A DNA stretch of 64,000 nt. Origin: Asterella californica (Eukaryota > Streptophyta > Marchantiopsida > Marchantiales > Aytoniaceae). Under the pieces are notes generated by a model. The model was given only the letters and a program-made list of their open reading frames with translations, searched no databases and was not told the DNA's origin. Both the position numbers and the translations under genes were made by a program. Location of the stretch: NCBI GenBank assembly GCA_036924285.1, contig JAYKYS010000019.1, forward strand, positions 372,001 to 436,000, given 5' to 3'. Positions 10,626 through 34,427 of this stretch are shown here, in pieces (position 1 is the first letter of the stretch; each line of letters opens with the position of its first letter).

Positions 10626-10642
10626 GTCCTACAGGGATGCGT

Positions 10643-12920: not shown

Positions 12921-12936
12921 TGGTGACCATATATTG
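12921..12936 (+). other. Candidate primer-binding site of D1
   Basis: TGGTGACCATATATTG begins 2 nt after a CGACA that would end U5 at 12918. D2 has the same block at 26066 after ACTACA. The 2-nt gap matches gypsy B's layout. I do not recognise the tRNA, and the site also forms an inverted repeat with TGGTCACC 20 bp downstream. Confidence 0.4.
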
Positions 12937-13438: not shown

Positions 13439-16400
13439 GTGAGGTACCGACTACCTACACCATTGCCGTCGGTTGTTCCAGAGGACGAGTCAGACGCAGA
13501 CAGTGCGTTTTCTGGTGGTGAGTCTAGTGTCGCAACACCGTTGTTGTGGGACATGGACGAGATCTATGAGGCCACGAAGGGGCCTCGACGTTACTCGGGT
13601 ACAGTTGGTACCATTGAGCTGGATGACTTCATCCAGGAGTTCGACAGTTGGTGCGATCTGCAGCAGATGCGGAACCCACAGCTGTTTACACCCTTCATGG
13701 CGTGGAAGGGTTTGTTCCAGCACTTGGAGGGATCGCCGATGGACGATTATCATGAGTTCAGGCGAGATTACAGTATTGAGATCGAGTTGTGGAGACAACA
13801 TTGGTCTCCCAACTACGTTTCTATCACTACTGGTGCAGTTTCGAGAGGCGTAGCACCTGCGAGTTCGGGTGCCAGTAGCAGTGGTACAACCGCAGGTGGT
13901 GGAGTACCTACTACCAGCGGTGCGTCCACAGGTAGTGGAGCGGATGGTAGTGTGAGCGGGATACCACCAGGGTTTAACCTTGTGGTTCAGTTCTTCCAAT
14001 GTTTGAGGAAGAACTATCAGGGTGTGCGGACCGACAAGTTGAGGAGTCTGCAGGAGTTCCAGCGGAAGACTGGAGAGAGCCTACGCGAGGCGTTTACTCG
14101 CATGAGGCGGTTGATCAGCGTTACCCAAGGGGTGACGGAAGCACAGGCAGTCCAGATCTGGTATGGGATACTAGACCGGGAGCTGCGTAGGAGAGTTAGA
14201 GATGCTACTCTTCTTAGAGATACCGCTCCGACGTTGGCGGTTGTCTTCAGTCTGGCTGAGCGGATTGAGCTCAACATGGTGGAGGAGAGGGTGGTGGTTG
14301 TTGGGTTCAGCAAGGAGACACCACATGGAGCGACCACCTCTTCTCGAGGATCACAGGCTACGCAATAGCGTGGTGGTGGTGGTGGTAAGGATCGTGCAGA
14401 GCAGTCACGATCGCAGGGAGGTGTAGGAGGATCTGGTGGGCAGAAGCCCATGCCGTCCTTCGCTAGTCAGCAGCAAGCGGGTCCTTGCTGGACGTGTGAT
14501 GGTCCTCATCAGCAGAGGGACTGTCCACAGAGGAGAGGTTATGAGACGTCAGAGACATCAGGGACGTCTCCAGCAGTACCTAGGCAATGTGAGCATTGCG
14601 GACGACCTGGTCACAGTAGTGACCGTTGTTTTGATCTCCATCCCGAGTTGCGGCAAGAGAAGGCTGATCGTGGACGAGGCGGAGGAGCTCAGGGAGGCCG
14701 TGGTGGTCGAGCTGGAGGTAGAGGTCCAGCACCTGGGAGAGGACCGGTCAGTCCACCGCCTGCTACGACGTCAGAAGCAGGTATGGTTGCTCGGATTGAG
14801 CAGTTGGAGCAGAGGATAGCTAGTATGGCTGTGGCTCAGCGAAGGTCAGGTGGAACAGAGGCTTCCACGTCTTATGGAGGAGAAGGAGGTGACTTCGACT
14901 TCATGGCTGGTGTGGCGCAGATTGAGGCATCTACGGCAGTGACTAGAGGTGCAGTACGTGCCTCTGAGCCACGAGGGGCATCAGTGGAGTTGGATCCACA
15001 AAGCGGGGAGGCTGGTAGACAGGCTAGGCTTCCCCAGTCGTTCACGTTATCGGAGGCATTGAGGACCACATCTATGGTTCCTAAACGGCCTACTGATGGT
15101 GCAATAGAGTTGGAGACATCGACATCCAGGAGTGGGTGTGATGTGAGTCCACCTTCGACGTCTGTGGATGCGACGTCGAACCCGATGTTGAAGACGGCTA
15201 CAGCAGTTTTGCGAGCCTCACTATTCTCAGCCACGGATATGAGAGCATTGGGAGTCAACTTGGCTCCAGTGTTCCAGTTGGCGGCCACGCTCAGTGAGAG
15301 CGAGGATGTAGTTACCTCTAGTGCTGAAGTAGTTCAGCGAGAGGCGGTAGACGTGCCCATGGAGTCGAGGATCAGGACAGCTACCAGTGGTACTTGGCAA
15401 GCGGCGGCTGCTAGGTTAGATGAGTTACCAGCTAGGCCGGTGATTGACCGTGCTGGTTTGGCACCAGGTGTGGTGTTGTTGGACAACAGAAGTGGTATCT
15501 TCTGTTTGGTGGCACCTTCAGGGAAAGTGTATCGACCTCAGAAGGTCTTGTTAGACTCTGGAGCCCAACCGTTGATGTTAGGAAAGGCGGCGTGTATTGG
15601 TTTGGGTCTGAAGAAGTCCGAGATAGAGAGATGTCCATTCCAGTTGCAGACATCTCTAGGGGGATCAGGAGGTACGGCTCTACACATGACACGTGAGATG
15701 TTGACGGTGAGAGTTCGGCCAGATCACCCCACGGATGGCTCTATGGTGAAGGCCAAGGCCATCGTTACAGCCGCAGAGTCTTATGATGTATTGGTGGGAG
15801 GTGCTGTGTTGTACCCTATGGGGTTCGTGATTGACTATTGGGCAGAGACAGCATCTTACAGACCAGGTTGGCAGTCCGGTGAGGGACGAGTGAGCCGCTT
15901 ACCAGTGCGGTTCAATGCTAGAGTTGGGACGACGGAGCCTACATCAGGAACGATGGCATCCGTTGCAGGGTTCAGTTCGATCATCACTTGGCCGGACGAG
16001 TTGTTGGAGGGTAATGCCCATGCGGAGGATACTCCGATCTATGAGGAGGTGGAGGACATGCCTAGCATGTCTACGTTAGTACCATCTGCCTTGGATGTTC
16101 CACTCTGGAGTTCGAGTGGAGAGTTGCAGCAGTATGCTGATCAGTTGGTGCAGCAGGCTTGGAGTGAAGCTTTTGTACCACCAATAGAGGAACAAAGGGT
16201 TGTTCCTGCTACTGGCCTTGTGACCTTATCACCGTTGGATACGACTCCCATTGTGTGGCAGTAACCAGAGGAGGGTGTATGTGTGCTGGAGCTGTTTGGA
16301 GGGATCAGCACAGGTTTGATTGCGGTATTGCAGGCAGGTATACAAGTACAGCGATACTTGTATGTGGAGAGAGATGAGATTGCGAGACGCATCTCATTGC

Positions 16401-17476
16401 GACATGTGGCACGTTTGGTGCAGAGATATCCTGAGTTGTTGCCCATATCAGCTGTTAGAGGATACCAGCAAGCATTACCGTCGGATATTTCGCTACTGGG
16501 GGCGCAAGATCTTACGTTTGTGGGCACCATTCACTTGGTGATAGCCTGATGGCCATGTCAAGGTCACACGCGTGCAGGGAGAGGTCAGGTTTACATGACC
16601 CGCGGATCTAGGATGTTCTGAGAGATGTTACGGATCCTACGACGTCTCCAGATGCATCAGGTAAATTCTCCAGCGTACATCTTGGACAACGTTCCTTTGT
16701 TGGGTGATGCTCGTACACAGATGATGGCGAGTGTGCACCAAGTGCGGTCTTGGGTTGGACCAGCAGTGTTGTTGGATGCAGCGAGAGTGGGATCTCGTGC
16801 ACATCGTCCACGGTTGTGGTGGACGAACTTGTTACCGAGAGAGGTGCTTAAGCGCGCACACGATGGAGTGAGACGACCAGCGCACCTCACGGTTGATAGC
16901 ATCTTGGATGCAAGACGACGATCTCAAGTAGTGAGAGTCGTCGATAGGTCACCCATGGCAGTGGTGAACCTAGTGGGACGACCCATGATAGCATTACTCA
17001 CTTTGGTAAGCTTTCCAGCGTCACATGCTTACAGAGATGGAGGACATGGGCTTGTGTGGGATGCTCAATTACGGCAGTTGGTGGAGCCCAATGCCGATGA
17101 GAGAGAGCGAGCGATGGGTTTCACTACGGGTACGACGGCAGTAGCTTCGGTGTCGGAGGCTTCACGTCGTCAAGTATTGGGTCAAGCAATGGACTTGAAT
17201 TGCTTGACATGGATTGTTAGCCTTGGATTGGCTGAGCAGCGTCGGATGCGATCGACGGGTGTTACTGCTCGAGCACTCTTGAGCTCTTTGCCTACCGGGT
17301 CGATGGAGGCAAAGGCTGGGGGCGAGGCACGTGGAGTTCGTCATCCTTGGACATCATGGGATTTCATAGGAGAGAGTGTGGAGTTTGCAGCTAGAACTGC
17401 AGAAGTTTTACACACAGTAGCGGTGGAGGTTGTTGGTGGTGAGCAGAAGGAAACTGCTCCAGAGGCTGCAAGATAG
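13439..17476 (+). pseudogene. D1 gag-protease-methyltransferase polyprotein, broken
   Basis: Same frame and order as the open D2 copy: Gag, two CCHC-type knuckles (about 14486-14630), protease LLDSGAQPL (about 15550), C5-methyltransferase (16262-17240). Stops at 14366 (CAG in D2), 16262 (TAT in D2), 16547 (GGA in D2, inside the GWPC motif) and 16619 (TGG in D2) interrupt it. A one-base loss near 16589 is restored by a one-base gain near 16603. The methyltransferase is therefore cut just before its catalytic Pro-Cys. The frame ends at the natural TAG at 17474. Confidence 0.9.
16262..17240 (+). pseudogene. D1 cytosine-C5 DNA methyltransferase domain, inactivated
   Basis: Motif I (LELFGGISTG) at about 16285, a nonsense codon replacing the Gly of GWPC at 16547-16549 (the WPC that follows is intact), motif VI now DNV in place of ENV (about 16687), and HRPRLWW (about 16803). 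Besides the stops, the Glu-to-Asp change in ENV would itself damage catalysis, because that Glu contacts the target cytosine ring in this family. Confidence 0.85.
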
Positions 17477-17482
17477 CAGTCA
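17474..17482 (+). promoter_or_regulatory. Leaky-stop readthrough context in D1
   Basis: TAG CAG TCA matches the TMV-type readthrough consensus UAG CAR YYA. The same frame continues into pol. It is identical in D2 at 30612-30620, so the signal is shared by both copies. Confidence 0.7.
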
Positions 17483-20400
17483 ACGACTTCGTCTTCTACC
17501 TCTAGCATGGTGACAGAGGATACTTAGGAGCTGGAGATCGGACCCAAGCTTATAGGAGAGGAGAGACGAAGAGTCCAAAGATTCCTGAAGAGCTACAAGA
17601 ATTGTTTTGCTTTCAGTATGAAGGATTTGGGTACCTTGAAGGGACCTGGTATACGGATCGACTTGGCTAATGACACGCCAATCTTTCGACGTCCTTACAG
17701 ATACAGTGACATGGAGAGAGCCTTGATCTAGAGTCGGACTCAAGACTTGTTGGAAGCTGGGTTGGTGGAGATGTCGCATGGAGAATATGCATCTGCCACA
17801 GTTATGCCAGCCAAGAAGGATATGTATGGCAACTACACGGATAGGCGGATGTGTGGAGACTACCGTCTTATCAATCGGCAGACGAAGTCCGATAAGTATG
17901 CCATGCCGACACCTGAGGAGATCTTTGATGCAGTGGGGCATGTGAAGGTCTTCAGTACTTTGGATCTTCGAGCAGGGTATCATCAGTTGCCAGTGAGAGA
18001 AGAAGATAAGTCCAAGACAGCATTCTGGGGAATTGACTCTCACGGCAAGGATTGTTTGTATCAGTGGCGGTTCTTACCATTTGGGTTGAAGAACGCCCCT
18101 GCTGAGTTCCAAAGGGTGATGGACAGAATCCTAGCAGGATTGGATTTTGTCAGATGTTATATTGACGACATCTTAGTCTATAGTGCTGCAGTGGAAGAGC
18201 ACGAGAGACACTTACGGGATGTGTTTGAGCGGTTGAGAGCTCATGGGTTGAAGTTACACCCTGGGAAGTGTAAGTTCTTCCAGGAGTTGGTAGAGTATCT
18301 GGGCCACACCATCTATCCAGGTGGATTGGGTGTTCAACAGACGAAGGTTGAGGCTATTGCACGTATCCCACGCCCCACAGATGTGAGTCGAGTTCGAGCA
18401 TTTGTTGGTTTGGTGAACTTCTATCGTCGATACGTGAAAGGGTTTAGTGCAATTGCGAAGCCGTTGACCAAGTTGATGAAGGTGGACCAGGAGTGGCAGT
18501 GGGGAGATGAGCAGGAGCGAGCTTTCATAGAGCTCAAGGATAGGTTGACATCTGCTCCCATCTTGAGGAGACCCGTTAGGGGGCGTCCTTTCCAACTGCA
18601 TACCGATTGGAGTATGTTGGGACTTGGAGCAGTGCTGACTCAGCATGATGATGAGAAAAAGGAGTTCGTGGTGGCGTATGCCAGTCGCTCCAACAATTCA
18701 ACGGAGGCGAGGTATAGTTCGTATGAGGGAGAGTGTTTGGCGGCAGTGTGGGCTGTTGCACACTTTCGATGTTATCTGTTTGGGAACCCCTTTACTCTCA
18801 TCACTGATCACCAGCCGCTCAAGTGGTTGATGGAGTCCGACAAGCTTACAGGGAAGCTTGCACGATGGGCTCTGATCTTACAGGAGTATGACTTCTAGGT
18901 AGTACATAGACCTGGAGTTGCAAACCTAGATGCCGACGGGTTGAGTCGCAACCCGTGCACGAGTCAGCAGGATCAGACTGGGGCTTGTTGGCATGACGAG
19001 GTTGATGAGGAGATAGTGCCAGGGTGGCATGCATCTGCCTTTCTTTGTGTGTTGGCCATGAACTCTAGTATGGAGGGCCAAGTCGTATCTTTCTCTGGTC
19101 AGAGAGTAGATGATGAGTCTCCAGATCCTGAGGATGGAGATGGTGTTTCAGACCAGCGAGATATCCATGATGATGTTACCGTGATGGAGTATCTACGTAC
19201 TGGTGTGATAGTAGGCACAGTAAGTGCCAAGGAGCGAGATCGTGTCCTTCAACGAGCGAAGAGATTTCGACGAGAAGGACGACATGTACTTCGAGTGTGG
19301 GGTGATGGGAGCGTACGGATAGTGCCACATCCATCCCAAAGGGCACAGTTAGTACGACATGCCCATGAGGAGTTGGGACATTTTGGAGTGAAGCGTACGC
19401 ATAGCTTACTCCAAGGACAGTATTGGTGGCGTGGTATGCACATCGATGTGCAACAGTTTGTCGCACGATGTGTGGTTTGTGATCGAGTACGAGCATCGTT
19501 TAATGCTCCTACTCCACAGTTACACCCCTTACCGATTATGGGGTTGGGTTACCGTTGGAGTTTGGATTTTGCGGGACCCTTACCGTTGACCGTACGTCAC
19601 CACCGGTATGTGTTGGTGATGGTGGAGCACTTCTCCAAGTGGATTGAGTTGGTGGCATTACCAGACAAGGCGAGTGAAGGGACAGCGTACGCGTTCTTAG
19701 ATCGAGTGCTGAGTCGTTTCGGAGCACCAGCTGAAGTGCTGACAGACCAAGGTACAGAGTTCCTTGGTGAGTTTCAGGCCTTGTGTGATCAGGCGCTGAT
19801 TGATCATCGGACTACATCTCGAGATCATCCTGAGGCGGATGGTTTGGCGGAGAGGGTAGTTCAGACGATGAAGAGAGGATTGCGCAAGTATGGCTTGGAG
19901 AAGCGCCACTTGGGAGACTGGGATGTGCAGTTACCATGGTTGGCTATGGGCTACCGTTTTAGCCGACAAGCGTCTTTGGCTTCCTTCTCACCGTATTTCT
20001 TATTGTATGGCCGAGATCCAGATCTACCTTCGGCCATTCGTCGTGATTCTGCTGAGGTGTTGGACCTTGATGACCCGGATATGTGGGTGAGAGCATGTTC
20101 TCAACGAGCAGAGACATTTCGGAGAGTTATGCCTATGGCTTTTGAGAACCTAGCGATTGCCCAGCATAGAGACATGTTGCGGTATGCGACTATCCGAGGA
20201 GGAGGTTATCGGCCGTCGATTCGCAGGTTTCATCCTGACGATTATATCTATCTACAGCAGACTGCACCGACGACGTTGGACGTGACCGCAAGGCGCACTA
20301 TTTTACGAGTGCGTGAGGTGTTACCTTCTGGAGTACTCATGTTAGAGGGCCGTGATGGTGTTGTGTGGAAGGACCATGTGCGTAATTGCGCGCCATGTCA

Positions 20401-20602
20401 TCTTCCCAACATTGATGGTACCGTTGACCCAAGCTTAGCAGTTGTACGCGCGGGCTTGAGGTGTATGTTGTGTGGGTCTGCTGGTGGAGCAGCCCGTATG
20501 TTGGTGTGTGATGGTTGTTCGAGAGGTTGGCACATGTCATGTTTGACTCCACCTCTCAGTGTAGTTCCTACTGGACGGTGGGTTTGTCCTCGATGTATAT
20601 AG
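17477..20602 (+). pseudogene. D1 pol (RT, RNase H, integrase, PHD), broken
   Basis: RT with YIDDIL (about 18158-18175), RNase H, integrase HHCC and D,D-35-E core, and a terminal PHD finger. Stops at 17525 (TGG in D2), 17731 (CAG in D2) and 18896 (CAG in D2) break it. From 18941 to 20602 the integrase-PHD part is open, and codon 19279 is GGA where D2 has a TGA. Confidence 0.9.
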
Positions 20603-20669
20603 CGGAGATAGTCGATTAGATCTTTGCGTGGTATGGATTGCAGACAGGCGACTAACGATGGGACAATGT

Positions 20670-20904
20670 AGCACCCGGCCTCCTGATCCGTGCACCCATG
20701 AAGGTGTGTATCACGTAGTTGGGATATGGAGCTATCTGGAGTTAGAGGGACCTAACCGCCAGTTAGAGGGACCTAACCGCCAGTTAGGGGAGCGATTGTG
20801 GTACACTTGTGTATGTGTATGACATCGTCCATGTGTTATGTGTATGTGTGGTGTACCTCTGACAGCGATGTATGTTGTGTAGCGATGTGTATGCGCACGA
20901 CAGC
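20670..20904 (+). repeat. U3-like segment of D1
   Basis: TGTAGCACCCGG, a start typical of gypsy LTRs (many begin TGTAACACCC), lies after a purine-rich GATGGGACAA. A 22-bp tandem duplication of the GTTAGAGGGACCTAACCGCC word (about 20740-20784) is present twice here and once in D2 (33877-33898). The segment ends GCGCACGACAGC against the 3' terminal repeat. Confidence 0.65.
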
Positions 20905-21210
20905 TGTCACGTCAGTTTGGACCCCTCGGCTAGGTTGACCGAGTGCAAAGTGGCGCATCCCGGTAAGACCGTTAGTGCCTTTAGGGCGAGTTGGGGAGAG
21001 CCCACTAGGGGTAAACTTCGCAGGTAGGGCTTGGAGGCCTTAGTTCTTTGAGTTGAGTCTTCAAGCTCCAGGCTATGGTGGATAGTCTAGTTGAGTGTAA
21101 CCCGGATCCTCTTCGTGTTTAGAGTGGGTTTGGCTTGACCGTTTGTGGGTAATCCTTGTTGTGGTGTTGGAGATGGTAATCTCTGTATTCAGATATGTAT
21201 GCGCACGACA
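20905..21210 (+). repeat. 3' terminal repeat of D1
   Basis: About 290 bp matching 9298-9587, then only the last 15 bp (TGTATGCGCACGACA) of the 108-bp tail that D2 carries after this repeat. An internal deletion in the tail explains the difference. Confidence 0.8.
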
Positions 21211-23925: not shown

Positions 23926-23927
23926 GG

Positions 23928-25155
23928 TGTCCAGTTGAGAGTTTTCCTGAGAAGGGCGGAACCTTCTGGCTGTGATTTAACCGTGAAGGTTGTGTTGTGT
24001 CTACTCAGAGAAGCGTTGGGCTTCTGGTTGTGATGGATCACTCAAGAGATAGGACTTTCAGGTTACAACAGAGCACTCTAAACACTCATATAGATCTGTA
24101 TGAGTGTTCATAGTGCTCATAGTGCTCAGAAGGCAAAGTTCAGGTCTAACTAATAGTAATAGGATCAGACGGTGATTTAACACTCAAGAAGAGAGAAACT
24201 ATGATGGTTCAGACTCCTAAATTTCTCTTACATGTAAAAGAGGCCCCACTGAGCACACACACGAAGTTTCAGCTTGAGATCAATTTCTGACACCAAGATA
24301 TGGACAGAAAAGTTCGGGTCAAAGATATTGCGGTAGTTTCTAGTACTCAGACAGCTATTTCAACCTATAACAGAAAATTGGCTCGACCACTTTCAAAGAT
24401 TCTTACAGGATTTAGAGTCTACAGGATGCTGAACACCCCTGTGAAGTTGGGACTCCTGATTGTACACAGAACTCCAGATCTCGTTCTCTGAAGTTGCTGC
24501 TCTAGATTGAGAGCTTTTAAGACCCCCTCTGCTTCAGCGGCCGCCCTGAATTACTCACTCACTCAATTGACTTGAAACTTTTTGGACAGTCATAGCCCTG
24601 TTGACAATGAACGCAACCACGAAGGTTTGAAGTGATCTCCTCAATTCTGCTGCAATTGACACTGAAAACCCCAAATCCAACAAAAGTGGCGCAATTTTGG
24701 CACAATCCGAACTTCAATTGGGCATAACTCCTTCATTATTGCTCCAAATCGATCAAGAATTTCACTGAAAGTGCTTGGCACGACGAGCTCTATCTTCTTG
24801 TGCTCTCATATTTCGCAGATTCCTCACCAAATGCTCGAACTCTCCTTTAGACCTCTGTTTCTAAATTTAGAATTTTACAAAAGACAAAAACTGACCAATA
24901 GGAGTTCATAGCTCCACTTGGTTGTCCTCTAGTACCCTAATCCATGTGGTAACTTAACTTCACTCATAAGCTACCACGTTAGCTCCCCTAAAATGCCAGC
25001 GTAAAGCTTAAACTACCTAAAATGACACGCAACCCTGAAAGTAAACTTAAACCAGCTAAAAAGAGTGCATGGGCAACACGTAAGTACAACCCATGAGCTT
25101 AAACCCTATTAACATGGTAAATCTAAGTTATGTACATTGAACATCATAGACAAGT
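23928..25155 (-). repeat. 5' LTR of gypsy B, part 1 (left of D2)
   Basis: Begins (plus strand) TGTCCAGTTGAGAG and matches 4162-5380. It is cut at 25155 by D2 and resumes at 34428. The last four bases AAGT (25152-25155) are the D2 TSD. Confidence 0.9.
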
Positions 25156-25447
25156 TGTCACGTCAGTTTGGGCACCTCGACTAGGTTGACCGAGTGCGAA
25201 GTGGCGCATCCCGGTAAGGCCGTTAGTGCCGTTAGGGCGAGTTGGGGAGAGAGCCCACTAGGGGTAAACTTCGCAGGTAGGGCTTGGAGGCCTTAGTTCT
25301 TTGAGTTGAGCCTTCAAGCTCCAGGCTATGGTGGATAGTCTAGTTGAGTGTAACCCGGATTCTCTTCGTGTTTAGAGTGGGTTTGGCTTGACCGTTTGTG
25401 AGTGATCTTTGTTGTAGTGTTGGAGATAGTAATCTCTGTATTCAGAT
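25156..25447 (+). repeat. 5' terminal repeat of D2 (R-like)
   Basis: 292 bp matching 34022-34314 almost base for base. The upstream U3-like sequence that precedes the 3' copy (33805-34021) is absent here, since the AAGT target duplication directly abuts TGTCAC. Confidence 0.88.
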
Positions 25448-26063
25448 TACTCAAAGAACTAAGTGCAGGTCGAGGCGGAGTTCAGTAAGAGCTCGCTGAT
25501 CTGAAATCTGAAATCGTCCGCTTCGAGGAGCAGAGGTGCGTGAGTGCGGAGGCGTGAGAGCGGAGTGCGAGAGTGCGGAGGCGGAGCGGAGCGGAGCGGA
25601 GCTGAGCCTGAGCCTGAGCCCGAGCCCGCGCCCGCCGCAAGCCAGCTTGCTGGCGTGCGTGAGAGAGGTATCCAAGCTTCAGGTGTGTGGGAAGGGTAAA
25701 ACCAGCTGGTCACCCATCCCAACACTATTCCTGGACCTGGACTCCTGACTTTTTAGTCTTAGCTTTGGCTTTACCACTAGACCAATAGCTCTTGGTGTCC
25801 TACAGGGATGCGTGCAAGTACTTATGGACTTGTTTAAGGTAGTAGGAGACCTTCTCGCACGTTCCTAGAGGAGTGGTAGGGCGACCCCATAGTATTAGGG
25901 GCAAGCTATAGTTGTGATAGTGTTTGTCTATACCGTAGAGACGCGTATGTAGGCAGTTGGTGGCAGTTGTCGTGGGTGAGCTAGTAGAGCTACCACGTGG
26001 ATGTTTTTGGAGCTACTAGAGGTGTGGACATCTAGTTAGTGACCTCCAGTGTCAGTTACTACA
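25448..26063 (+). other. U5-like leader of D2
   Basis: About 616 bp between the terminal repeat and the candidate primer site. It holds a G+C-rich GGAGC-repeat stretch at 25575-25640 and the SINE-like block below. It is not repeated after the 3' terminal repeat, which a normal LTR would require. Confidence 0.55.
25670..25797 (-). repeat. SINE-like tRNA-derived sequence in the D2 leader
   Basis: Same block as D1 10500-10625: A-box-like TTGGTCTAGTGGTAAAG, B-box-like GGAGTCCAGGTCC and a 5S-like GGGATGGGTGACC on the minus strand. Confidence 0.45.
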
Positions 26064-26065
26064 GT

Positions 26066-26081
26066 TGGTGACCATATATTG
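26066..26081 (+). other. Candidate primer-binding site of D2
   Basis: TGGTGACCATATATTG, 2 nt after ACTACA (CGACA in D1) and about 520 bp above gag. The tRNA is not identified. Confidence 0.4.
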
Positions 26082-26582
26082 TGCATGTGGTCACCGACGA
26101 GGAGACGTCAGTCCGGGTGGGGCTGGATTTCTCTTTATGTGAATGTTTGAGTGTGGAGGGTTATCGTTTGGACTTCTTGTGGTTGGAACCCCTCCATATT
26201 CTGCTTCCTGTTTGTGCGCCGCGTTTGCTTGTGTTGGCGCTTGATTTCCGGAGTGAGTTCACTCCAGTGTGCTGTCGATAGTGAGGCTGGAGTTGCGGAC
26301 CAGTCAGACTACCTTTGTCTCTCTCACGGTGCGGTTGGAGTGACGACCAACAGACCGTGAGAGGCTGCCTGTGGTGATGGCAGGTACAGGTTGCCCTTAC
26401 CTTGACCGTCCTAGTAGGGGATAGGTGAGCTCAGTAGGAGCGGGGTTAGGCAAGTGGTGGTTACGGTGGTGACGGAGATTGCGACTTCCGGTTGGAGAGT
26501 GTGCTAGCGGGATTCTCTCATCACGGAGTTCTCGGGAGGTTCTGGTGGGGACTTCTCCGACAGTGGGTATACACGGAGTGGG

Positions 26583-29500
26583 GTGAGGTACCGACTACCT
26601 ACACCATTACCGTCGGTTGTTCCAGAGGACGAGTCAGACGCAGACAGCGCGTTTTCTGGTGGTGAGTCTAGTGTCACCACATCGTTGTTGTGGGACATGG
26701 ACGAGATCTATGGGGCCACGAAGGGGCCTCGACGTTACTCGGGTACAGTTGGTACCATTGAGCTGGATGACTTCATCCAGGAGTTCGACAGTTGGTGCGA
26801 TCTGCAGCAGATGCGGAACCCACAGCTGTTTACACCCTTCATGGCGTGGAAGGGTTTGTTCCAGCACTTGGAGGGACCGCCGATGGACGATTATCATGAG
26901 TTCAGGCGAGATTACAGTGTTGAGATCGAGTTGTGGAGACAACATTGGTCTCCCAACTACGTTTCTATCACTACTGGCGCAGTTTCGGGAGGCGTAGCAC
27001 CTGCGAGTTCGGGTGCCAGTAGCAGTGGTGCAGCCACAGGTGGCGGAGTACCTACTACCGGTGCATCCACAAGTAGTGGAGCAGGTGGTAGTGTGAGCGG
27101 GATACCACCAGGGTTTAACCCTGTGGTTCAGTTCTTCCAATGTTTGAGGAAGAACTATCAGGGTGTGCGGACCGACAAGTTGAGGAGTCTGCAGGAGTTC
27201 CAGCGGAAGACTGGAGAGAGCCTACGCGAGGCATTTACTCGCATGAGGCGGTTGATCAGCGTTACCCAAGGGGTGACGGAAGCACAGGCAGTCCAGTTCT
27301 GGTATGGGATACTAGACCGGGAACTGCGTAGGAGAGTTAGAGATGCTACTCTTCTTAGAGATACCGCTCCGACGTTGGCGGTTGTCTTTAGTCTGGCTGA
27401 GCGGATTGAGCTCAACATGGTGGAGGAGAGGGTGGTGGTTGCTGGGTTCAGCAAGGAGACACCACATGGAGCGACCACCTCTTCTCGAGGATCACAGGCT
27501 ACGCAACAGCGTGGTGGTGGTGGTAAAGATCGTGCAGAGCAGTCACGATCGCAGGGAGGTGTAGGAGGATCTGGTGGGCAGAAGCCCATGCCGTCCTTCT
27601 CTAGTCAGCAGCAAGCGGGTCCTTGCTGGACGTGTGATGGTCCTCATCAGCAGAGGGACTGTCCACAGAGGAGAGGTTATGAGACGTCAGGGACATCAGG
27701 GACGTCTCCAGCAGTACCTAGGCAATGTGAGCATTGCGGACGACCTGGTCACAGTAGTGACCGTTGTTTTGATCTCCATCCCGAGTTGCGGCAAGGGAAG
27801 GCTGATCGTGGACGAGGCGGAGGAGCTCAGGGAGGCCGTGGTGGTCGAGCTGGAGGTAGAGGTCCAGCACCTGGGAGAGGACCGGTCGGTCCACCGCCTG
27901 CTACGACGTCAGAAGCAGGTATGGCTGCTCGGATTGAGCAGTTGGAACAGAGGATAGCTAGTATGGCTATGGCTCAGCGGAGATCAGGTGGAACAGAGGC
28001 TTCCACGTCTTATGGAGGAGAAGGAGGCGACTTCGACTTCATGGCTGGTGTGGCGCAGATTGAGGCATCTGCGGCAGTGACTAGAGGTGCAGTACGTGCC
28101 TCTGAGCCACGAGGTGCGTCAGTGGAGTTGGATCCACAACGCGGGGAGGCTGGTAGACAAGCCAGGCTTCCTCAGTCGTTCACGCTATCGGAGGCGTTGA
28201 GGACCACATCTATGGTTCCTAAACGACCTACCGATGGTGCAGTAGAGTTGGAGGCATCGACATCCAGGAGTGGGTGTGATGTGAGTCCACCTTCGACGTC
28301 TGTGGATGCGACGTCGAACCCGATGTTGGGGGCGGCTACAGCAGTTTTGCGAGCCCCACTATTCTCAGCCACGGATATGAAGGCATTGGGAGTCAACTTG
28401 GCTCCAGTGTTCCAGTTGGCGGCCAGGCTCAGTGAGAGCGAGGATGTAGTTACCTCTAGTGCTGAGGTAGTTCAGCGAGAGGCGGTAGACGTGTCCATGG
28501 AGTCGAGGATCAGGACAGCTACCAGTGGTACTTGGCAAGCGGCGGCTGCTAGATTAGATGAGTTACCAGCTAGGCCGGCGATTGACCGTGCTAGTTTGGC
28601 ACCAGGTGTGGTGTTGCTGGACAACAGAAGTGGTATCTTCTGTTTGGTGGCACCTTCTGGGAAAGTGTATCGACCCCAGAAGGTCTTGTTAGACTCTGGA
28701 GCCCAACCGTTGATGTTGGGAAAGGCGGCGTGTATTGATTTGGGTCTGAAGAAGTCCGAGATAGAGAGATGTCCATTCCAGTTGCAGACATCTCTAGGGG
28801 GATCAGGAGGTACGGCTCTACACATGACACGGGAGATGTTGACGGTGAGAGTTCGACCAGATCACCGTACGGATGGCTCTATGGTGAAGGCCAAGGCCAT
28901 TGTTACAGCCGCAGAGTCTTATGATGTATTGGTGGGAGGTGCTGTGTTGTACCCTATGGGGTTCGTGATTGACTATTGGGCAGAGACAGCATCTTACAGA
29001 CCAGGTTGGCAGTCCGGTGAGGGACGAGTGAGCCGCTTACCAGTGCGGTTCAGTGCTAGAGTTGGGACGACGGAGCCTACATCAGGGACGATGGCATCTG
29101 TTGCAGGGTTCAGTTCGGTCATCACTTGGCCGGGCGAGTTGTTGGAGGGCAATGCCCATGCGGAGGATACTCCGATCTATGAGGAGGTGGAGGACATGCC
29201 TAGCATGTCTACGTTAGTACCATCTGCCTTGGATGTTCCACTCTGGAGTTCGAGTGGAGAGTTGCAGCAGTATGCTGATCAGTTGGTGCAGCAGGCTTGG
29301 AGTGAAGCTTTTGTACCACCAGTAGAGGAACAAAGGGTTGTTCTTGCTACTGGCCCTGTGACCTTATCACCGTTGGATACGACTCCCATTGTGTGGCAGT
29401 ATCCAGAGGAAGGTGTATGTGTGCTGGAGCTGTTTGGAGGGATCAGCACAGGTTTGGCTGCGGTATTGCAAGCAGGTATACAAGTACAGCGATACTTGTA

Positions 29501-30614
29501 TGTGGAGAGAGATGAGATTGCGAGACGCATCTCATTGCGACATGTGGCACGTTTGGTGCAGAGATATCCTGAGTTGTTGCCCATATCAGCTGTTAGAGGA
29601 TACCAGCAAGCATTACCGTCGGATATTTCGCTGCTGGGGGCGCAGGATCTCACGTTTGTGGGCACCATTCACTTGGTGATAGCCGGATGGCCATGTCAAG
29701 GTCACACGCGTGCAGGGAGAGGTCAGGGTTTACATGACCCGCGATCTAGGATGTTCTGGGAGATGTTACGGATCTTACGACATCTCCAGATGCATCAGGT
29801 GGATTCTCCAGCGTACATCTTGGAGAATGTTCCTTTGTTGGGTGATGCTCGTACACAGATGATGACGAGTGTGCACCAAGTGCGGTCTTGGGTTGGACCA
29901 GCAGTGTTGTTGGATGCAGTGAGAGTGGGATCTCGTGCACATCGTCCACGGTTGTGGTGGACGAACTTGTTACCGAGAGAGGTGCTTAAGCGCGCACACG
30001 ATGGAGTGAGACGACCAGCGCACCTCACGGTTGATAGCATCTTGGATACAGGACGACGATCTCAAGTAGTGAGAGTCGTCGATAGGTCACCCATGGCAGT
30101 GGTGAACCTAGTGGGACGGCCCATGGTAGCATTACCCACATTGGTAAGCTTTCCAGCGTCACATGCTTACAGAGATGGAGGACCTGGGCTTGTGTGGGAT
30201 GCTCAATTACGGCAGTTGGTGGAGCCCAATGCCGATGAGAGAGAGCGAGCGATGGGTTTCACTACGGGTACGACGGCAGTAGCTTCGGTGTCGGAGGCTT
30301 CACGTCGTCAAGTATTGGGTCAAGCAATGGACTTGAATTGCTTGACATGGATTGTTAGCCTTGGATTGGCTGAGCAGCGTCGGATGCGATCGACGGGTGT
30401 TACTGCTCGAGCACTCTTGAGCTCTTTGCCTACCGGGTCGGTGGAGGCAAAGGCTGGGGGCGAGGCACGTGGAGTTCGTCATCCTTGGACATCATGGGAT
30501 GTCATAGGAGAGAGTGTGGAGTTTGCAGCTAGAACTGCAGAAGTTTTACACACAGTAGCGGTGGAGGTTGTTGGTGGTGAGCAGAAGGAAACTGCTCCAG
30601 AGGCTGCAAGATAG
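26583..30614 (+). CDS. D2 Gag-protease-DNA methyltransferase polyprotein
   Basis: 1343 open codons ending at TAG 30612. Gag capsid-like helices occupy about residues 45-300, with a Ser/Thr/Gly-rich spacer. Two knuckles follow: CWTCDGPHQQRDC (about 347) and CEHCGRPGHSSDRC (about 381). An Arg/Gly-rich patch lies at about 405-435. The retropepsin motif LLDSGAQP is near 700. The cytosine-C5 methyltransferase fills about 940-1270. The frame is open only back to a TAG at 26505, with no in-frame ATG before the one at 26697, so the true start is unsure: 26697, a non-AUG codon, or a spliced leader. Gag would package RNA, protease would process the precursor, and the methyltransferase could modify element or host DNA. 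Confidence 0.92.
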   Translation: MRYRLPTPLPSVVPEDESDADSAFSGGESSVTTSLLWDMDEIYGATKGPRRYSGTVGTIELDDFIQEFDSWCDLQQMRNPQLFTPFMAWKGLFQHLEGPPMDDYHEFRRDYSVEIELWRQHWSPNYVSITTGAVSGGVAPASSGASSSGAATGGGVPTTGASTSSGAGGSVSGIPPGFNPVVQFFQCLRKNYQGVRTDKLRSLQEFQRKTGESLREAFTRMRRLISVTQGVTEAQAVQFWYGILDRELRRRVRDATLLRDTAPTLAVVFSLAERIELNMVEERVVVAGFSKETPHGATTSSRGSQATQQRGGGGKDRAEQSRSQGGVGGSGGQKPMPSFSSQQQAGPCWTCDGPHQQRDCPQRRGYETSGTSGTSPAVPRQCEHCGRPGHSSDRCFDLHPELRQGKADRGRGGGAQGGRGGRAGGRGPAPGRGPVGPPPATTSEAGMAARIEQLEQRIASMAMAQRRSGGTEASTSYGGEGGDFDFMAGVAQIEASAAVTRGAVRASEPRGASVELDPQRGEAGRQARLPQSFTLSEALRTTSMVPKRPTDGAVELEASTSRSGCDVSPPSTSVDATSNPMLGAATAVLRAPLFSATDMKALGVNLAPVFQLAARLSESEDVVTSSAEVVQREAVDVSMESRIRTATSGTWQAAAARLDELPARPAIDRASLAPGVVLLDNRSGIFCLVAPSGKVYRPQKVLLDSGAQPLMLGKAACIDLGLKKSEIERCPFQLQTSLGGSGGTALHMTREMLTVRVRPDHRTDGSMVKAKAIVTAAESYDVLVGGAVLYPMGFVIDYWAETASYRPGWQSGEGRVSRLPVRFSARVGTTEPTSGTMASVAGFSSVITWPGELLEGNAHAEDTPIYEEVEDMPSMSTLVPSALDVPLWSSSGELQQYADQLVQQAWSEAFVPPVEEQRVVLATGPVTLSPLDTTPIVWQYPEEGVCVLELFGGISTGLAAVLQAGIQVQRYLYVERDEIARRISLRHVARLVQRYPELLPISAVRGYQQALPSDISLLGAQDLTFVGTIHLVIAGWPCQGHTRAGRGQGLHDPRSRMFWEMLRILRHLQMHQVDSPAYILENVPLLGDARTQMMTSVHQVRSWVGPAVLLDAVRVGSRAHRPRLWWTNLLPREVLKRAHDGVRRPAHLTVDSILDTGRRSQVVRVVDRSPMAVVNLVGRPMVALPTLVSFPASHAYRDGGPGLVWDAQLRQLVEPNADERERAMGFTTGTTAVASVSEASRRQVLGQAMDLNCLTWIVSLGLAEQRRMRSTGVTARALLSSLPTGSVEAKAGGEARGVRHPWTSWDVIGESVEFAARTAEVLHTVAVEVVGGEQKETAPEAAR
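29400..30375 (+). other. C5-cytosine DNA methyltransferase domain of D2
   Basis: Motif I LELFGGISTG (29423; SAM site). Motif IV IAGWPCQGHTRAGRGQGL (29678), with the catalytic Cys after Pro. Motif VI ENV (29824). Motif VIII SRAHRPRLWW (29932). A target-recognition stretch follows, then NADERERAMGF (30223) and SEASRRQVLGQAMD (30289) as motifs IX/X. Order I to X is not permuted, unlike plant DRM enzymes. Motif I plus the GIQVQRYLYVERDE stretch resembles DNMT3 more than MET1/CMT (inference). All key residues are present. No BAH, CXXC, PWWP or UBA domain is visible beside it. Confidence 0.9.
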
Positions 30615-30620
30615 CAGTCA
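30612..30620 (+). promoter_or_regulatory. Programmed leaky stop between D2 gag-pro-MTase and pol
   Basis: TAG CAG TCA fits the tobacco mosaic virus readthrough consensus UAG CAR YYA exactly. Pol continues in the same frame with no further stop for 600 codons and no need of its own ATG. Gypsy elements commonly fuse Gag and Pol or use a frameshift; a TMV-type leaky stop would make Pol a minor fusion product. It is conserved in D1 although that copy has decayed. Confidence 0.75.
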
Positions 30621-33600
30621 ACGACTTCGTCTTCTACCTCTAGCATGGTGACAGAGGATACTTGGGAGCCGGAGATCGGACCCAAGCTTATAGGAGAGGA
30701 GAGACGAAGAGTCCAAAGATTCCTGAAGAGCTACAGGAATTGTTTTGCCTTCAGTATGAAGGATTTGGGTACCTTGAAGGGACCTGGTATACGGATCGAC
30801 TTGGCTAATGACACGCCAATCTTTCGACGTCCTTACAGGTACAGTGACATGGAGAGAGCCTTGATCCAGAGTCGGACTCAAGATTTGTTGGAGGCTGGGT
30901 TGGTGGAGATGTCGCATGGAGAGTATGCATCTGCCACAGTTATGCCAGCCAAGAAGGATATGTATGGCAACTACACGGATAGGCGGATGTGTGGAGACTA
31001 CCGTCCTATCAATCGGCAGACGAAGTCCGATAAGTATGCCATGCCGACACCTGAGGAGATCTTTGATGCAGTGGGGCATGTGAAGGTCTTCAGTACTTTG
31101 GATCTTCGAGCAGGGTATCATCAGTTGCCAGTGAGAGAAGAAGATAAGTCCAAGACAGCATTTTGGGGAATTGACTCTCACGGCAAGGATTGTTTGTATC
31201 AGTGGCGGTTCTTACCATTTGGGTTGAAGAACGCCCCTGCTGAGTTCCAAAGGGTGATGGACAGAATCCTAGCAGGATTGGATTTTGTCAGATGTTATAT
31301 TGACGACATCTTAGTCTATAGTGCTACAGTGGAGGAGCACGAGAGACACTTACGAGATGTGTTTGAGCGGTTGAGAGCTCATGGGTTGAAGTTACACCCT
31401 GGGAAGTGTAAGTTCTTCCAGGAGTTGGTAGAGTATCTGGGCCACACCATCTATCCAGGTGGATTGGGTGTTCAACAGACGAAGGTTGAGGCTATTGTAC
31501 GTATTCCACGCCCCACAGATGTGAGTCGAGTTCGAGCATTTGTTGGTTTGGCGAACTTCTATCGTCGATACGTGAAAGGGTTTAGTGCAATTGCGAAGCC
31601 GTTGACCAAGCTGATGAAGGTGGACCAGGAGTGGCAGTGGGGAGATGAGCAGGAGCGAGCTTTTGTAGAGCTCAAGGATAAGTTGACATCTGCTCCCATC
31701 TTGAGGAGACCCGTTAGAGGGCGTCCTTTCCAACTGCACACCGATTGGAGTATGTTGGGACTTGGAGCAGTGCTGACTCAGCATGATGATGAGAAAAAGG
31801 AGTTCGTGGTGGCATATGCCAGTCGCTCCAACAATTTAGCGGAGGCGAGGTATAGTTCGTATGAGGGAGAGTGTTTGGCGGCAGTGTGGGCTGTTGCACA
31901 CTTTCGATGTTATCTGTTTGGGAACCCCTTTACTCTCATCACTGATCACCAGCCGCTCAAGTGGTTGATGGAGTCCGATAAGCTTACAGGGAAGCTTGCA
32001 CGATGGGCTCTGATCTTACAGGAGTATGACTTCCAGGTAGTACATAGACCTGGAGTTGCAAACCTAGATGCCGATGGGTTGAGTCGCAACCCGTGCACGA
32101 GTCAGCAGGATCAGACTGGGGCTCGATGGCATGACGAGGTTGATGAGGAGATAGTGCCAGGGTGGCATGCATCTGCCTTTCTTTGTGTGTTGGCCATGAA
32201 CTCTAGTATGGAGGGCCAAGTCGTATCTTTCTCTGGTCAGAGAGTAGATGATGAGTCTCCAGATCCTGAAGGTGGAGATGGTGTTTCAGACCAGCGAGAT
32301 ATCCATGATGATGTGACCGTGATGGAGTATCTACGTACTGGTGTGGTAGTAAGCACAGTAAGTGCCAAGGAGCGAGATCGTGTCCTTCAACGAGCGAAGA
32401 GATTTCGACGAGAATGACGACATGTACTTCGAGTGTGGGGTGATGGGAGGGTACGGATAGTGCCACATCCATCCCAGAGGGCACAGTTAGTACGACATGC
32501 CCATGAGGAGTTGGGACATTTTGGAGTGAAGCGTACGCATAGCTTACTCCAAGGACAGTATTGGTGGCGTGGTATGCACATCGATGTGCAACAGTTTGTC
32601 GCACGATGTGTGGTTTGTGATCGAGTACGAGCATCGTTTAATGCTCCTACTCCACAGTTACACCCCTTACCGATTATGGGGTTGGGTTACCGTTGGAGTT
32701 TGGATTTTGCGGGACCCTTACCGTTGACCGTACGTCATCACCGGTATGTGTTGGTGATGGTGGAGCACTTCTCCAAGTGGATTGAGTTGGTGGCATTACC
32801 AGACAAGGCGAGTGAAGGGACAGCGTATGCGTTCTTAGATCGAGTGCTGAGTCGTTTTGGAGCACCAGCTGAAGTGCTGACAGACCAAGGTACAGAGTTC
32901 CTTGGTGAGTTTCAGGCCTTGTGTGATCAGGCGCTGATTGATCATCGGACTACATCTCGAGATCATCCTGAGGCGGATGGTTTGGCGGAGAGGGTAGTTC
33001 AGACGGTGAAGAGAGGATTGCGCAAGTATGGCTTGCAGAAGGGCCACTTGGGAGACTGGGATGTGCAGTTACCATGGTTGGCTATGGGCTACCGTTTTAG
33101 CCGACAAGCGTCTTTGGCTTCCTTCTCACCGTATTTCTTATTGTATGGCCGAGATCCAGATCTACCTTCGGCCATTCGTCGTGATTCTGCTGAGGTGCTG
33201 AACCTTGATGACCCGGATATGTGGGTGAGAGCATGTTCTCAACGAGCAGAGACATTTCGGAGAGTTATGCCTATGGCTTTTGAGAACCTAGCGATTGCTC
33301 AGCATAGAGACACGTTGCGATATGCGACTATCCGAGGAGGAGGTTATCGGCCATCGATTCGCAGGTTTCATCCTGGCGATTATATCTATCTACAGCAGAC
33401 TGCACCGACGACGTTGGACGTGACCGCAGGGCGCACTATTTTACGAGTGCGAGAGGTGTTACCTTCTGGAGTACTCATGTTAGAGGGCCGTGATGGTGTT
33501 GTGTGGAAGGACCATGTGCGTAATTGCACGCCATGTCATCTTCCCAACATTGATGGTACCGTTGACCCAAGCTTAGCAGTTGTACGCGCGGGCTTGAGGT

Positions 33601-33740
33601 GTATGTTGTGTGGGTCTGCTGGTGGAGCAGCCCGTATGTTAGTGTGTGATGGTTGTTCGAGAGGTTGGCATATGTCATGTTTGACTCCACCTCTCAGTGT
33701 CGTTCCTACTGGACGGTGGGTTTGTCCTCGATGTATATAG
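30615..33740 (+). pseudogene. D2 Pol: RT, RNase H, integrase and PHD finger (one nonsense codon)
   Basis: In frame with the preceding ORF. RT has VKVFSTLDLRAGYHQ, FLPFGLKNAP and YIDDIL (about 31296). RNase H starts FQLHTDWSMLGLGAVL, then a Glu in the YEGECLAAV helix and TDHQPLKW. Integrase has an HHCC zinc site (H-x3-H at about 32497 and C-x2-C at about 32607) and a catalytic core (LDFAGPL, LTDQGTEFLG, HPEADGLAER: D, D-35-E). A PHD finger ends the protein. A TGA at 32415 (GGA in D1) lies between RNase H and integrase, so an active integrase needs complementation or suppression. The open parts are 30645-32417 and 32433-33740. Confidence 0.92.
33595..33740 (+). other. PHD finger at the D2 integrase C terminus
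   Basis: The last about 47 residues show the C4-H-C3 ligand order: CMLC, CDGC, HMSC and CPRC, with the PHD-typical W in GRWVCPRC and the LVCDGC core. PHD fingers read histone H3 tails. At this place many plant gypsy elements carry a chromodomain; none is visible here. D1 has the same finger at 20457-20602. Confidence 0.88.
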
Positions 33741-33804
33741 CGGAGATAGTCGATTAGATCTTTGCGTGATATGGATTGCAGACAGGCGACTAACGATGGG
33801 GCGA

Positions 33805-34021
33805 TGTAGCACCCGGCCTCCTGATCCTTGCACCCATGAAGGTGTGTATCACGTAGTTGAGATATGGAGCTATCTGGAGTTAGAGGGACCTAACCGCCAG
33901 TTAGGGGGGCGATTGTGGTACACTTGTGTATGTGTATGACATCGTCCATGTGTTATGTGTATGTGTGGTGTACCTCTGACAGCGATGTATGTTGTGTAGC
34001 GATGTGTATGCGCACGACAGC
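33805..34021 (+). repeat. U3-like segment of D2
   Basis: TGTAGCACCCGG start after the purine-rich GATGGGGCGA (33795-33804, probable polypurine tract) and 65 bp after the pol stop. It ends with a 108-bp (T/G/A)-rich tail (33912-34019, ATTGTGG...CGACA) and GC. It is absent from the 5' end of the element. Confidence 0.65.
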
Positions 34022-34423
34022 TGTCACGTCAGTTTGGGCACCTCGACTAGGTTGACCGAGTGCGAAGTGGCGCATCCCGGTAAGGCCGTTAGTGCCGTTA
34101 GGGCGAGTTGGGGAGAGAGCCCACTAGGGGTAAACTTCGCAGGTAGGGCTTGGAGGCCTTAGTTCTTTGAGTTGAGCCTTCAAGCTCCAGGCTATGGTGG
34201 ATAGTCTAGTTGAGTGTAACCCGGATTCTCTTCGTGTTTAGAGTGGGTTTGGCTTGACCGTTTGTGAGTGATCTTTGTTGTAGTGTTGGAGATAGTAATC
34301 TCTGTATTCAGATTTATTGTGGTACACTTGTGTATGTGTATGACATCGTCCATGTGTTATGTGTATGTGTGGTGTACCTCTGACAGCGATGTATGTTGTG
34401 TAGCGATGTGTATGCGCACGACA
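34022..34423 (+). repeat. 3' terminal repeat of D2 with extra U3 tail
   Basis: 34022-34314 repeats the 5' terminal sequence. 34315-34423 is a second copy of the 108-bp U3 tail (33912-34019). The AAGT target duplication follows at 34424-34427. Confidence 0.85.
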
Positions 34424-34427
34424 AAGT

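What the first reader, a model, noticed from the sequence alone, without database searches (positions are those of the whole stretch)
29400..30375. A Ty3/gypsy retrotransposon carries its own DNA cytosine methyltransferase
Seen: one frame runs Gag, knuckles, protease, then a C5-methyltransferase with motifs I, IV (Pro-Cys), VI (ENV), VIII and IX/X in order. The same layout is in D1, so it is a property of the family and not a chance fusion. Known: retrotransposon-borne DNMTs were described in dinoflagellates and a charophyte alga (de Mendoza et al. 2018, Nature Communications), where de novo CG methylation was shown. Inference: the domain is nearer DNMT3 than MET1/CMT/DRM. A land-plant element writing host-type silencing marks on itself would be a notable extension, or the same lineage inherited from a streptophyte ancestor.
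Basis: partly seen in the sequence, partly recalled or inferred. Interest (0 to 1): 0.93.

Follow-up and report, generated by a model that had tools for sequence, protein, structure and literature searches.

The report
Bryophyte retrotransposon carrying DNA methyltransferase
A jumping gene in what is probably a moss or liverwort genome carries its own DNA-methylating enzyme, plus a second domain of a kind that reads histone marks, so a genomic parasite may be writing the silencing marks its host normally uses against it; the closest published case is in a green alga.

Summary
ORF 26583-30614 is Gag-CCHC-protease-DNMT; the DNMT (29400-30377) is a DNMT3-type C5-methyltransferase by sequence and predicted fold, with its motifs intact. 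It belongs to a complete Ty3/gypsy element (25156-34423) with identical repeats, a 4-bp target duplication, and a PHD finger on its integrase. A second, decayed copy lies at 9298-21210. Close relatives occur in Marchantia polymorpha (14 proteins) and Sphagnum (1).

The kind is known: KnitGypsy-Dnmt3 of the alga Klebsormidium (de Mendoza 2018). Its domain order (PR-DNMT-RT-RH-INT) and its odd repeat layout (A-coding-B-A-B) are the same here.

New here: an apparent land-plant extension; one DNMT lineage that tracks the RT over two architectures; the PHD finger; a leaky-type stop that puts the DNMT on the Gag side; a self-priming site; and termini implying that a DDE integrase inserts a circularised cDNA. 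Self-methylation itself is not shown: CpG depletion is no stronger than in a neighbouring element. The host was not identified directly.

The parts
25156..34423 (+). Complete element (el2), TG...CA termini
   Evidence: empty site at 5345-5410 compared with both flanks; repeats
25152..25155 (+). Target-site duplication AAGT, left
34424..34427 (+). Target-site duplication AAGT, right
25156..25448 (+). Repeat A1 (left end); identical to A2
   Evidence: 0 of 293 differences
25292..25306 (+). Predicted start of R (transcript 5' end) and self-primer
   Evidence: perfect 15-nt complement of 25449-25463
25449..25463 (+). Self-priming primer-binding site directly after A1
   Evidence: the second copy keeps 12 nt
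26583..30614 (+). ORF1: Gag - CCHC knuckles - protease - DNMT
29400..30377 (+). DNMT3-type C5-cytosine methyltransferase domain; motif IV Cys codon at 29694
30612..30620 (+). In-frame stop TAG-CAG-TCA (fits leaky UAG-CARYYA pattern, recalled), same in both copies
30645..32417 (+). ORF2: reverse transcriptase (YIDD at 31296) - RNase H; ends at a stop that interrupts the frame in this copy
32433..33740 (+). ORF3: integrase (H2C2; D91, D151, E186 of ORF3) with C-terminal PHD finger
33600..33737 (+). PHD finger
   Evidence: PF00628 E 5.6e-11; PDB matches; position
33900..33911 (+). G-rich, polypurine-like tract just before B1
   Evidence: by eye
33912..34019 (+). Repeat B1
34020..34021 (+). GC spacer of the B1|A2 junction CGACA-GC-TGTCACG (contains palindrome GACAGCTGTC)
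34022..34314 (+). Repeat A2
34316..34423 (+). Repeat B2 (right end); one extra T at 34315 between A2 and B2
9298..21210 (+). Second, decayed copy (el1), interrupted between its left part and 12665; its B2 is only the last 19 nt
5345..5410 (+). Paralogous empty site of the el2 insertion

Best explanation
This is a young Ty3/gypsy-class retrotransposon of the KnitGypsy-Dnmt3 kind. Shown by sequence: it encodes a DNMT3-type methyltransferase between protease and RT and a PHD finger after the integrase. Inferred mechanism: ORF1 is translated at Gag level, so DNMT is made and packaged in Gag amounts; a leaky UAG yields the longer product with RT-RH-INT-PHD. The transcript primes its own reverse transcription by folding its 5' end onto the site next to A1. 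Plus-strand synthesis from the tract before B1 gives a cDNA whose true LTR is B+A. The double-stranded cDNA is methylated by the co-packaged DNMT, its ends are joined into a circle, and the DDE integrase cuts at the palindromic B|A junction and inserts it with a 4-bp duplication, leaving A-coding-B-A-B. The PHD finger probably steers insertion to chromatin with unmodified H3K4. The new copy would be born methylated, which could hide it from foreign-DNA sensing or limit harm to the host. My confidence that it is a DNMT3-bearing element of this kind is about 0.95; the figure below is for the mechanism as a whole.
For: DNMT identity. Over 111 DNMT rows (window included) the motif IV Cys is kept in 108, the motif VI Glu in 110, the motif VIII Arg in 111. 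DNMT identity to six Marchantia proteins is 72-78%, between protease (63-69%) and RT (85-86%, three proteins). One split separates DNMT-before-RT from DNMT-after-RNase H in both the RT tree (97/92, 57 rows) and the DNMT tree without outgroup (100/97, 57 rows), so DNMT and RT have travelled together. Recent activity: A1=A2 over 293 nt, B1=B2 over 108 nt. TG..CA ends, TSD AAGT, empty site. Self-priming complement of 15 nt at the exact repeat edge; 12 of 20000 shuffles reach even 10 nt. The A2|B2 seams differ between the two copies (one extra T; 89 nt of B missing with GAT shared), as end-joined circles would. Stop shared by both copies. The PHD lacks the aromatic residue of H3K4me3 readers: the position is G 56, P 4, A 2 in the 62 of 67 family PHDs that fit the pattern (the rule is recalled).
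Against: No activity data. The Klebsormidium relative gave no methylation in yeast, inconclusive. CpG observed/expected is 0.735 in el2, not below the copia-like neighbour (0.643). C/T differences between the copies are densest at CHG (5.9%), then CG (3.9%) and CHH (3.0%), which fits ordinary host silencing as well. Ka/Ks between the two copies is higher in DNMT (0.40; 10 synonymous, 12 nonsynonymous) than in RT-RH (0.175; 16 and 10), with few changes and one decayed copy. With a DNMT3A fragment as outgroup the DNMT-before-RT rows are not one clade. No TSD was found for el1. The circle model rests on two copies, and the circle could also be cut at B1|A2; no copy of that form is in the window. 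Several homologs, among them four Marchantia gene models, run on from DNMT into RT. The integrase-PHD model has mean pLDDT only 69.4.
Confidence: 0.5

Rival explanations
1. The DNMT is active but acts mainly on host chromatin or on competing elements (or as a brake on its own copy number), and not on its own cDNA.
For: A PHD finger on the integrase gives a route to chromatin; the copies look methylated in the genome by their transition excess, 160 to 29.
Against: In the window the DNMT sits on the Gag side, apart from integrase and PHD, which favours action inside particles. In the other architecture it lies next to the integrase, so this argument does not hold for the whole family.
Confidence: 0.25
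2. The DNMT domain is retained as an RNA-binding, structural or RNA-methylating part and methylates no DNA.
For: The Klebsormidium domain was inactive in yeast.
Against: Catalytic Cys, Glu and Arg kept in 108, 110 and 111 of 111 rows; DNMT2 chains match far more weakly than DNMT3 and the Foldseek rows shown are DNMT3; the authors call the negative inconclusive because DNMT3B also failed.
Confidence: 0.15
3. The B-A-B ending is a product of local rearrangement or recombination of an ordinary LTR element and no special integration route exists.
For: Only two copies in the window; el1 also has odd inverted sequence at its left flank, and its short B2 could be a later deletion.
Against: Both copies, in different flanks, begin at TGTCACG and end at CGACA; el2 has a TSD and an empty site; de Mendoza et al. 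report the same DIRS-like repeat layout for KnitGypsy-Dnmt3.
Confidence: 0.15
4. A host DNMT gene fragment or assembly chimera joined to a retroelement at this one locus.
For: None found.
Against: Same fusion in the second copy and in Marchantia, Sphagnum, Klebsormidium, Closterium and unnamed proteins.
Confidence: 0.01

Closest known systems
KnitGypsy-Dnmt3 of Klebsormidium nitens (de Mendoza et al. 2018, PMC5890265; that P0117 KFL_009030040 and P0177 KFL_007970030 are copies of it is my inference)
   Same: Gypsy domain set; DNMT3-type domain; P0117 has the order PR-DNMT-RT-RH-INT; DIRS-like repeat layout; RTs on one side of a branch with 97/92
   Different: DNMT 41%, RT 47%, INT 59% identical to the window (P0117); no stop between DNMT and RT in the P0117 gene model; PHD not testable because P0117 is partial; host an alga
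SymbioDIRS-Dnmt3 of dinoflagellates (same paper)
   Same: DNMT3-type domain; A-coding-B-A-B repeats; DNMT shown to methylate CG in yeast
   Different: Tyrosine recombinase and a DIRS RT; the authors regard the acquisition as independent
RT-RH-DNMT-INT-PHD elements from unnamed, mostly metagenomic sources (P0034, P0040, P0043 and others)
   Same: Related RT, INT, DNMT and PHD
   Different: DNMT lies between RNase H and integrase; hosts unnamed; I saw no description of them in the papers listed or read
Chromoviruses (Ty3/gypsy with chromodomain; recalled, and abstracts)
   Same: A chromatin-reading module after the integrase
   Different: PHD finger instead of chromodomain; DNMT; split repeats
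Tf1/sushi self-priming retrotransposons (recalled)
   Same: 5' end of the transcript complementary to the site just after the repeat
   Different: 15 nt instead of about 11; split repeats; DNMT

Membership tests
KnitGypsy-Dnmt3-like retrotransposons | Gypsy pol (RT, RNase H, DDE integrase) | tested here: met
   DDE residues (34 residues between D and E); Foldseek matches to foamy virus and Ty3 integrase
KnitGypsy-Dnmt3-like retrotransposons | DNMT3-type DNMT within the coding region, between protease and RT as in P0117 | tested here: met
KnitGypsy-Dnmt3-like retrotransposons | DIRS-like repeats, A-coding-B-A-B | tested here: met
   definition
KnitGypsy-Dnmt3-like retrotransposons | RT groups with the Klebsormidium RT | tested here: met
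   10 rows incl. window, Marchantia P0013 and P0117 against 47, 97/92; unrooted, no other Gypsy clade included
KnitGypsy-Dnmt3-like retrotransposons | Purifying selection on DNMT (Ka/Ks < 0.2) | tested here: inconclusive
   only two copies, one decayed: 0.40 from 22 changes
DNMT3 methyltransferases | Catalytic motifs I, IV, VI, VIII, X in unrearranged order | tested here: met
DNMT3 methyltransferases | Closest to DNMT3 among C5-MTases by sequence and fold | tested here: met
   only solved structures were compared
DNMT3 methyltransferases | Groups with host DNMT3 genes in a tree with DRM, CMT, MET1 and bacterial enzymes | not tested
   no plant host DNMT3 was recognised among the proteins found
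DNMT3 methyltransferases | De novo methyltransferase activity | not testable with these tools
   -
DIRS order | Tyrosine recombinase | tested here: not met
   DDE integrase instead
Self-priming (Tf1-like) elements | Transcript 5' end complementary to the site adjacent to the repeat | tested here: met
   for the complement; the transcript start is predicted, not observed

The most novel reading that the evidence does not exclude
A streptophyte retroelement lineage that is at once writer and reader of host chromatin marks (DNMT3 domain plus integrase PHD finger for unmodified H3K4), primes itself, and has given up linear LTR integration: its cDNA is closed into a circle by end joining and a DDE integrase opens it at a palindromic internal LTR junction, so every insertion carries a permuted A-coding-B-A-B structure with a private seam, and arrives pre-methylated.
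Probability: 0.3. Interest if true: 0.88.

Novelty: new variant of a known kind. Interest (0 to 1): 0.66.

Why it matters
A 2019 paper states that methylase-encoding transposons are not present in land plants such as tracheophytes (PMC6338049, passages read). Members in Marchantia and Sphagnum would put the system in tractable plants, where one can test directly whether a transposon marks its own DNA and why that pays. The termini also give a concrete, testable explanation for how DIRS-like repeats can coexist with a DDE integrase.

Tried and rejected
Host gene fragment or chimera: rejected. Bacterial or viral origin of the DNMT: not favoured; the viral-contig scan gave 12 loci, identity of the best segment 26-43% and at most 145 query residues matched, which I did not use further. 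CpG depletion as a sign of self-methylation: looked for, not found. Ka/Ks from the two copies: too few changes and one decayed copy. A TSD for el1: none found. A tRNA-type primer site: no TGG near the repeat edge by eye; the self-complement was found instead. A DNMT tree rooted on a DNMT3A fragment put DNMT-before-RT rows at the base and P0033 with the other architecture (97/90); the outgroup branch is 4.07 long, so I rely on the tree without it and state both. A regex motif count was badly written (0 of 111 for one motif) and is replaced by alignment columns.

Literature: ten searches. In the titles and abstract starts listed, and in the passages that I read, I saw no description of DNMT-bearing retrotransposons in bryophytes, of a PHD finger on a Gypsy integrase beside a DNMT, or of circle integration of such elements. 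The lists are capped, I opened few of the papers, most subscription papers are not held, and supplements could not be read. PMC12344493 (passages) calls the DNMT3-bearing LTR elements Copia, not Gypsy.

Row selection: the RT tree used 57 rows (56 of 184 proteins with an RT stretch of 200 aa or more, plus the window); Marchantia is one row there. The DNMT set had 111 rows of at least 290 aa including the window, thinned by similarity to 57, plus the DNMT3A fragment. P0117, P0177, P0153 and the Sphagnum P0031 were too short in the DNMT for that tree; P0037 (77% identical to P0117 over 40% of its length) stands for Klebsormidium.
Full report
What is there. The window holds two related retroelements on the + strand. 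The younger one (el2) runs from 25156 to 34423. ORF1, 26583-30614, encodes Gag, two CCHC knuckles, a protease and a C5-cytosine methyltransferase domain at 29400-30377. ORF2 (30645-32417) encodes RT and RNase H, ORF3 (32433-33740) integrase and a C-terminal PHD finger (PF00628 E 5.6e-11). All three lie in one reading frame, broken by stops at 30612 and 32415. The first stop is present in both copies; the second is in el2 and not in el1. The older copy (el1, 9298-21210) is 97% identical over 8.5 kb but decayed: 4 stops over ORF1 and 3 over ORF2, two nearby 1-nt gaps and an ENV-to-DNV change within the DNMT.

The domain is a DNMT3-type enzyme. Pfam DNA_methylase scores E 1.5e-8. Among solved structures the best sequence matches are DNMT3A (1.5e-11), DNMT3B and 3C; then come a plant 'DNA methyltransferase' (4onj, 8e-5; recalled as a DRM), M.HaeIII (6e-4), DRM2 (0.003), M.HhaI (0.012) and DNMT2 (0.14). 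None of the 52 matches at E up to 1 is named DNMT1 or CMT. A profile of 15 family proteins ranks DNMT3A first among methyltransferases in the best 60 of 289 rows (1.4e-21; 4onj 7e-11). The AlphaFold model (pLDDT 89.2, pTM 0.90) matches DNMT3A best (Foldseek E 5.8e-20, TM 0.74 by query length), and the 50 rows shown are all chains of DNMT3 entries. Over 111 aligned DNMT rows, the window included, the motif IV Cys is kept in 108 and its Pro in 102, the motif VI Glu in 110 and Asn in 98, and the motif VIII Arg in 111. Motif numbers are recalled.

It is a family trait. One search gave 65 proteins: 14 named Marchantia polymorpha, 1 Sphagnum fallax, 50 without an organism name. One search gave 64 proteins, none with an organism name. 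One search gave 72, including three of Klebsormidium nitens and one of Closterium. Together these are 184 distinct proteins, each with a DNMT match; 58 show the DNMT alone. Two architectures occur. In Marchantia, Sphagnum, Klebsormidium, Closterium and the window the DNMT precedes RT. In a large set of unnamed proteins it lies between RNase H and integrase: 39 read RT-RH-DNMT-INT-PHD and 5 more also show PR. The RT tree (57 rows) separates the two types with 97/92 support, 10 rows against 47. The DNMT tree without outgroup separates the same two types with 100/97 support, 21 rows against 36. With a single long DNMT3A branch as outgroup the DNMT-before-RT rows are not one clade. The simplest reading is one capture followed by one relocation; two captures from related sources are not excluded. 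One DNMT-before-RT protein, P0063, also carries the PHD finger, as the window does, so the PHD occurs in both architectures.

Relation to published work. De Mendoza et al. 2018 (PMC5890265; parts 1-2 of 7 and sections 9, 10 and 11 read; passages) described KnitGypsy-Dnmt3: Gypsy domains, a Dnmt3-type DNMT in the Pol ORF, and repeats arranged as in DIRS elements, A-coding-B-A-B. The window element has this layout: A1 25156-25448, B1 33912-34019, A2 34022-34314, B2 34316-34423. The Klebsormidium protein P0117 has the order PR-DNMT-RT-RH-INT. I therefore file the element in that kind. The paper's main text has no occurrence of Marchantia, PHD or Sphagnum. PMC6338049 (passages) says methylase-encoding transposons are not present in land plants such as tracheophytes. 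PMC12344493 (passages) cites the streptophyte and dinoflagellate cases and calls the LTR elements Copia.

Termini. An empty paralogous site (5345-5410) set beside the flanks gives ...GACAAGT|TGTCACG... on the left and ...GCGCACGACA|AAGTAAG... on the right: TG..CA ends and a 4-bp duplication AAGT. el1, in other flanks, starts at the same TGTCACG and ends at the same CGACA, but no duplication was found. A1 and A2 of el2 are identical over 293 nt and B1 and B2 over 108 nt; in el1 A1 and A2 differ at 10 positions plus one gap in 292 columns. So el2 is a recent insertion with the ends expected of a DDE-type integrase, although the repeats are DIRS-like.

Priming and the circle model. The 15 nt right after A1 (25449-25463) are the exact complement of 25292-25306 inside A1; in el1 12 nt pair, and by eye one further position becomes G-U. 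Only 12 of 20000 shuffles of A give even 10 nt. This is the signature of self-priming as recalled for Tf1, and it predicts a transcript start at 25292. A G-rich tract, TTAGGGGGGCG, ends at B1. These two sites define an ordinary LTR of B+A, but the inserted copies are permuted by B. Joining the ends of a B+A - coding - B+A cDNA and cutting at a B|A junction gives exactly A-coding-B-A-B. Under this model B2 is not carried over in the replicated part of the RNA, so the A2|B2 seam is made anew each time. The two seams do differ: el2 has one extra T; el1 lacks 89 nt of B and shares GAT across the seam. This is inference from two copies, and a later deletion in el1 is possible.

Expression. The stop at 30612 is TAG-CAG-TCA in both copies. 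This fits the leaky UAG-CARYYA pattern (recalled, tobacco mosaic virus type), which six random bases would fit about once in 512 by my arithmetic. Of the homologs with DNMT after Gag or protease, 18 end 75-168 residues after the DNMT without RT, as the window ORF1 does; others end sooner or are cut; Marchantia models P0004, P0005, P0010 and P0013, Sphagnum P0031, P0027, P0030, P0033, P0063, Closterium P0153 and the Klebsormidium-like proteins run on into RT. Gene models cannot tell readthrough from splicing. If the stop is real and leaky, the DNMT is made at Gag level and RT-INT-PHD at a lower level.

The PHD finger. Top PDB matches are PHDs of the MLL3 homolog, CHD4, DPF2, KDM5B, PHF12 and KMT2D, with PHF21A, ATXR5, BAZ2B, AIRE and UHRF1 further down (best 60 of 97); many of these read unmodified H3K4 (recalled). 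In 62 of 67 family PHDs that fit the pattern, the position where H3K4me3 readers have Trp (recalled) holds G (56), P (4) or A (2); 5 domains did not fit. The window has G there. I infer a reader of unmodified H3K4, as the ADD domain of animal DNMT3 is (recalled). The integrase-PHD model is of low confidence (pLDDT 69.4); its best Foldseek matches are foamy virus and Ty3 integrases.

Against self-methylation. CpG observed/expected is 0.735 for el2, against 0.643 for a neighbouring copia-like element and 0.815 for 37442-64000, so there is no special depletion. Transitions exceed transversions 160 to 29 between the copies, densest at CHG, which fits ordinary plant silencing. Ka/Ks between the copies is 0.40 for DNMT and 0.175 for RT-RH, on few changes.

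Limits. The host is inferred to be a bryophyte from element similarity: RT 85-86% to Marchantia and 88% to Sphagnum over 81 residues. Such closeness across the liverwort-moss divide hints at horizontal transfer. No plant host DNMT3 gene was recognised among the proteins found, so the origin of the domain within DNMT3 is untested.

Verdict. A real DNMT-bearing Gypsy element, a relative of KnitGypsy-Dnmt3 and apparently a land-plant extension of it, with several features that I did not find described: the PHD finger, the leaky-type stop, the self-priming site, and DDE-type termini on split repeats.

Noticed in passing
window 9230-9310: A palindrome (9230-9264) and an inverted copy of the start of repeat A (9271-9290) lie at the left edge of el1; an aberrant insertion or nested event.
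   Followed up: partly
window 23921-25155, 34420-34727, 4156-5679: el2 sits inside a duplicated repeat whose other copy supplies the empty site; adjacent copia-like remains (Pol_BBD at 35413-35754, below the curated cut-off) have an inverted copy at 3-2872.
   Followed up: partly
window 7177-7677, - strand: Remains of another retroelement pol with RNase H domains; neighbouring ORFs at 6121-6579 and 8541-9254 had no Pfam match.
   Followed up: no
window 12108-12596, 50166-50462, 62427-63205: Tandem arrays with units of about 157, 99, 153 and 232 nt.
   Followed up: no
window 55093-56886: Two long Ser/Pro-rich ORFs without Pfam match, perhaps exons of a host gene.
   Followed up: no
P0031 (Sphagnum) and Marchantia proteins against the window: RT identity of 85-88% between the window and moss and liverwort elements is high for vertical descent; possible horizontal transfer among bryophytes.
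   Followed up: partly
P0034, P0040, P0043 and relatives: A large group of RT-RH-DNMT-INT-PHD elements of unnamed hosts; the largest cluster listed has 196 member sequences (P0069).
   Followed up: partly
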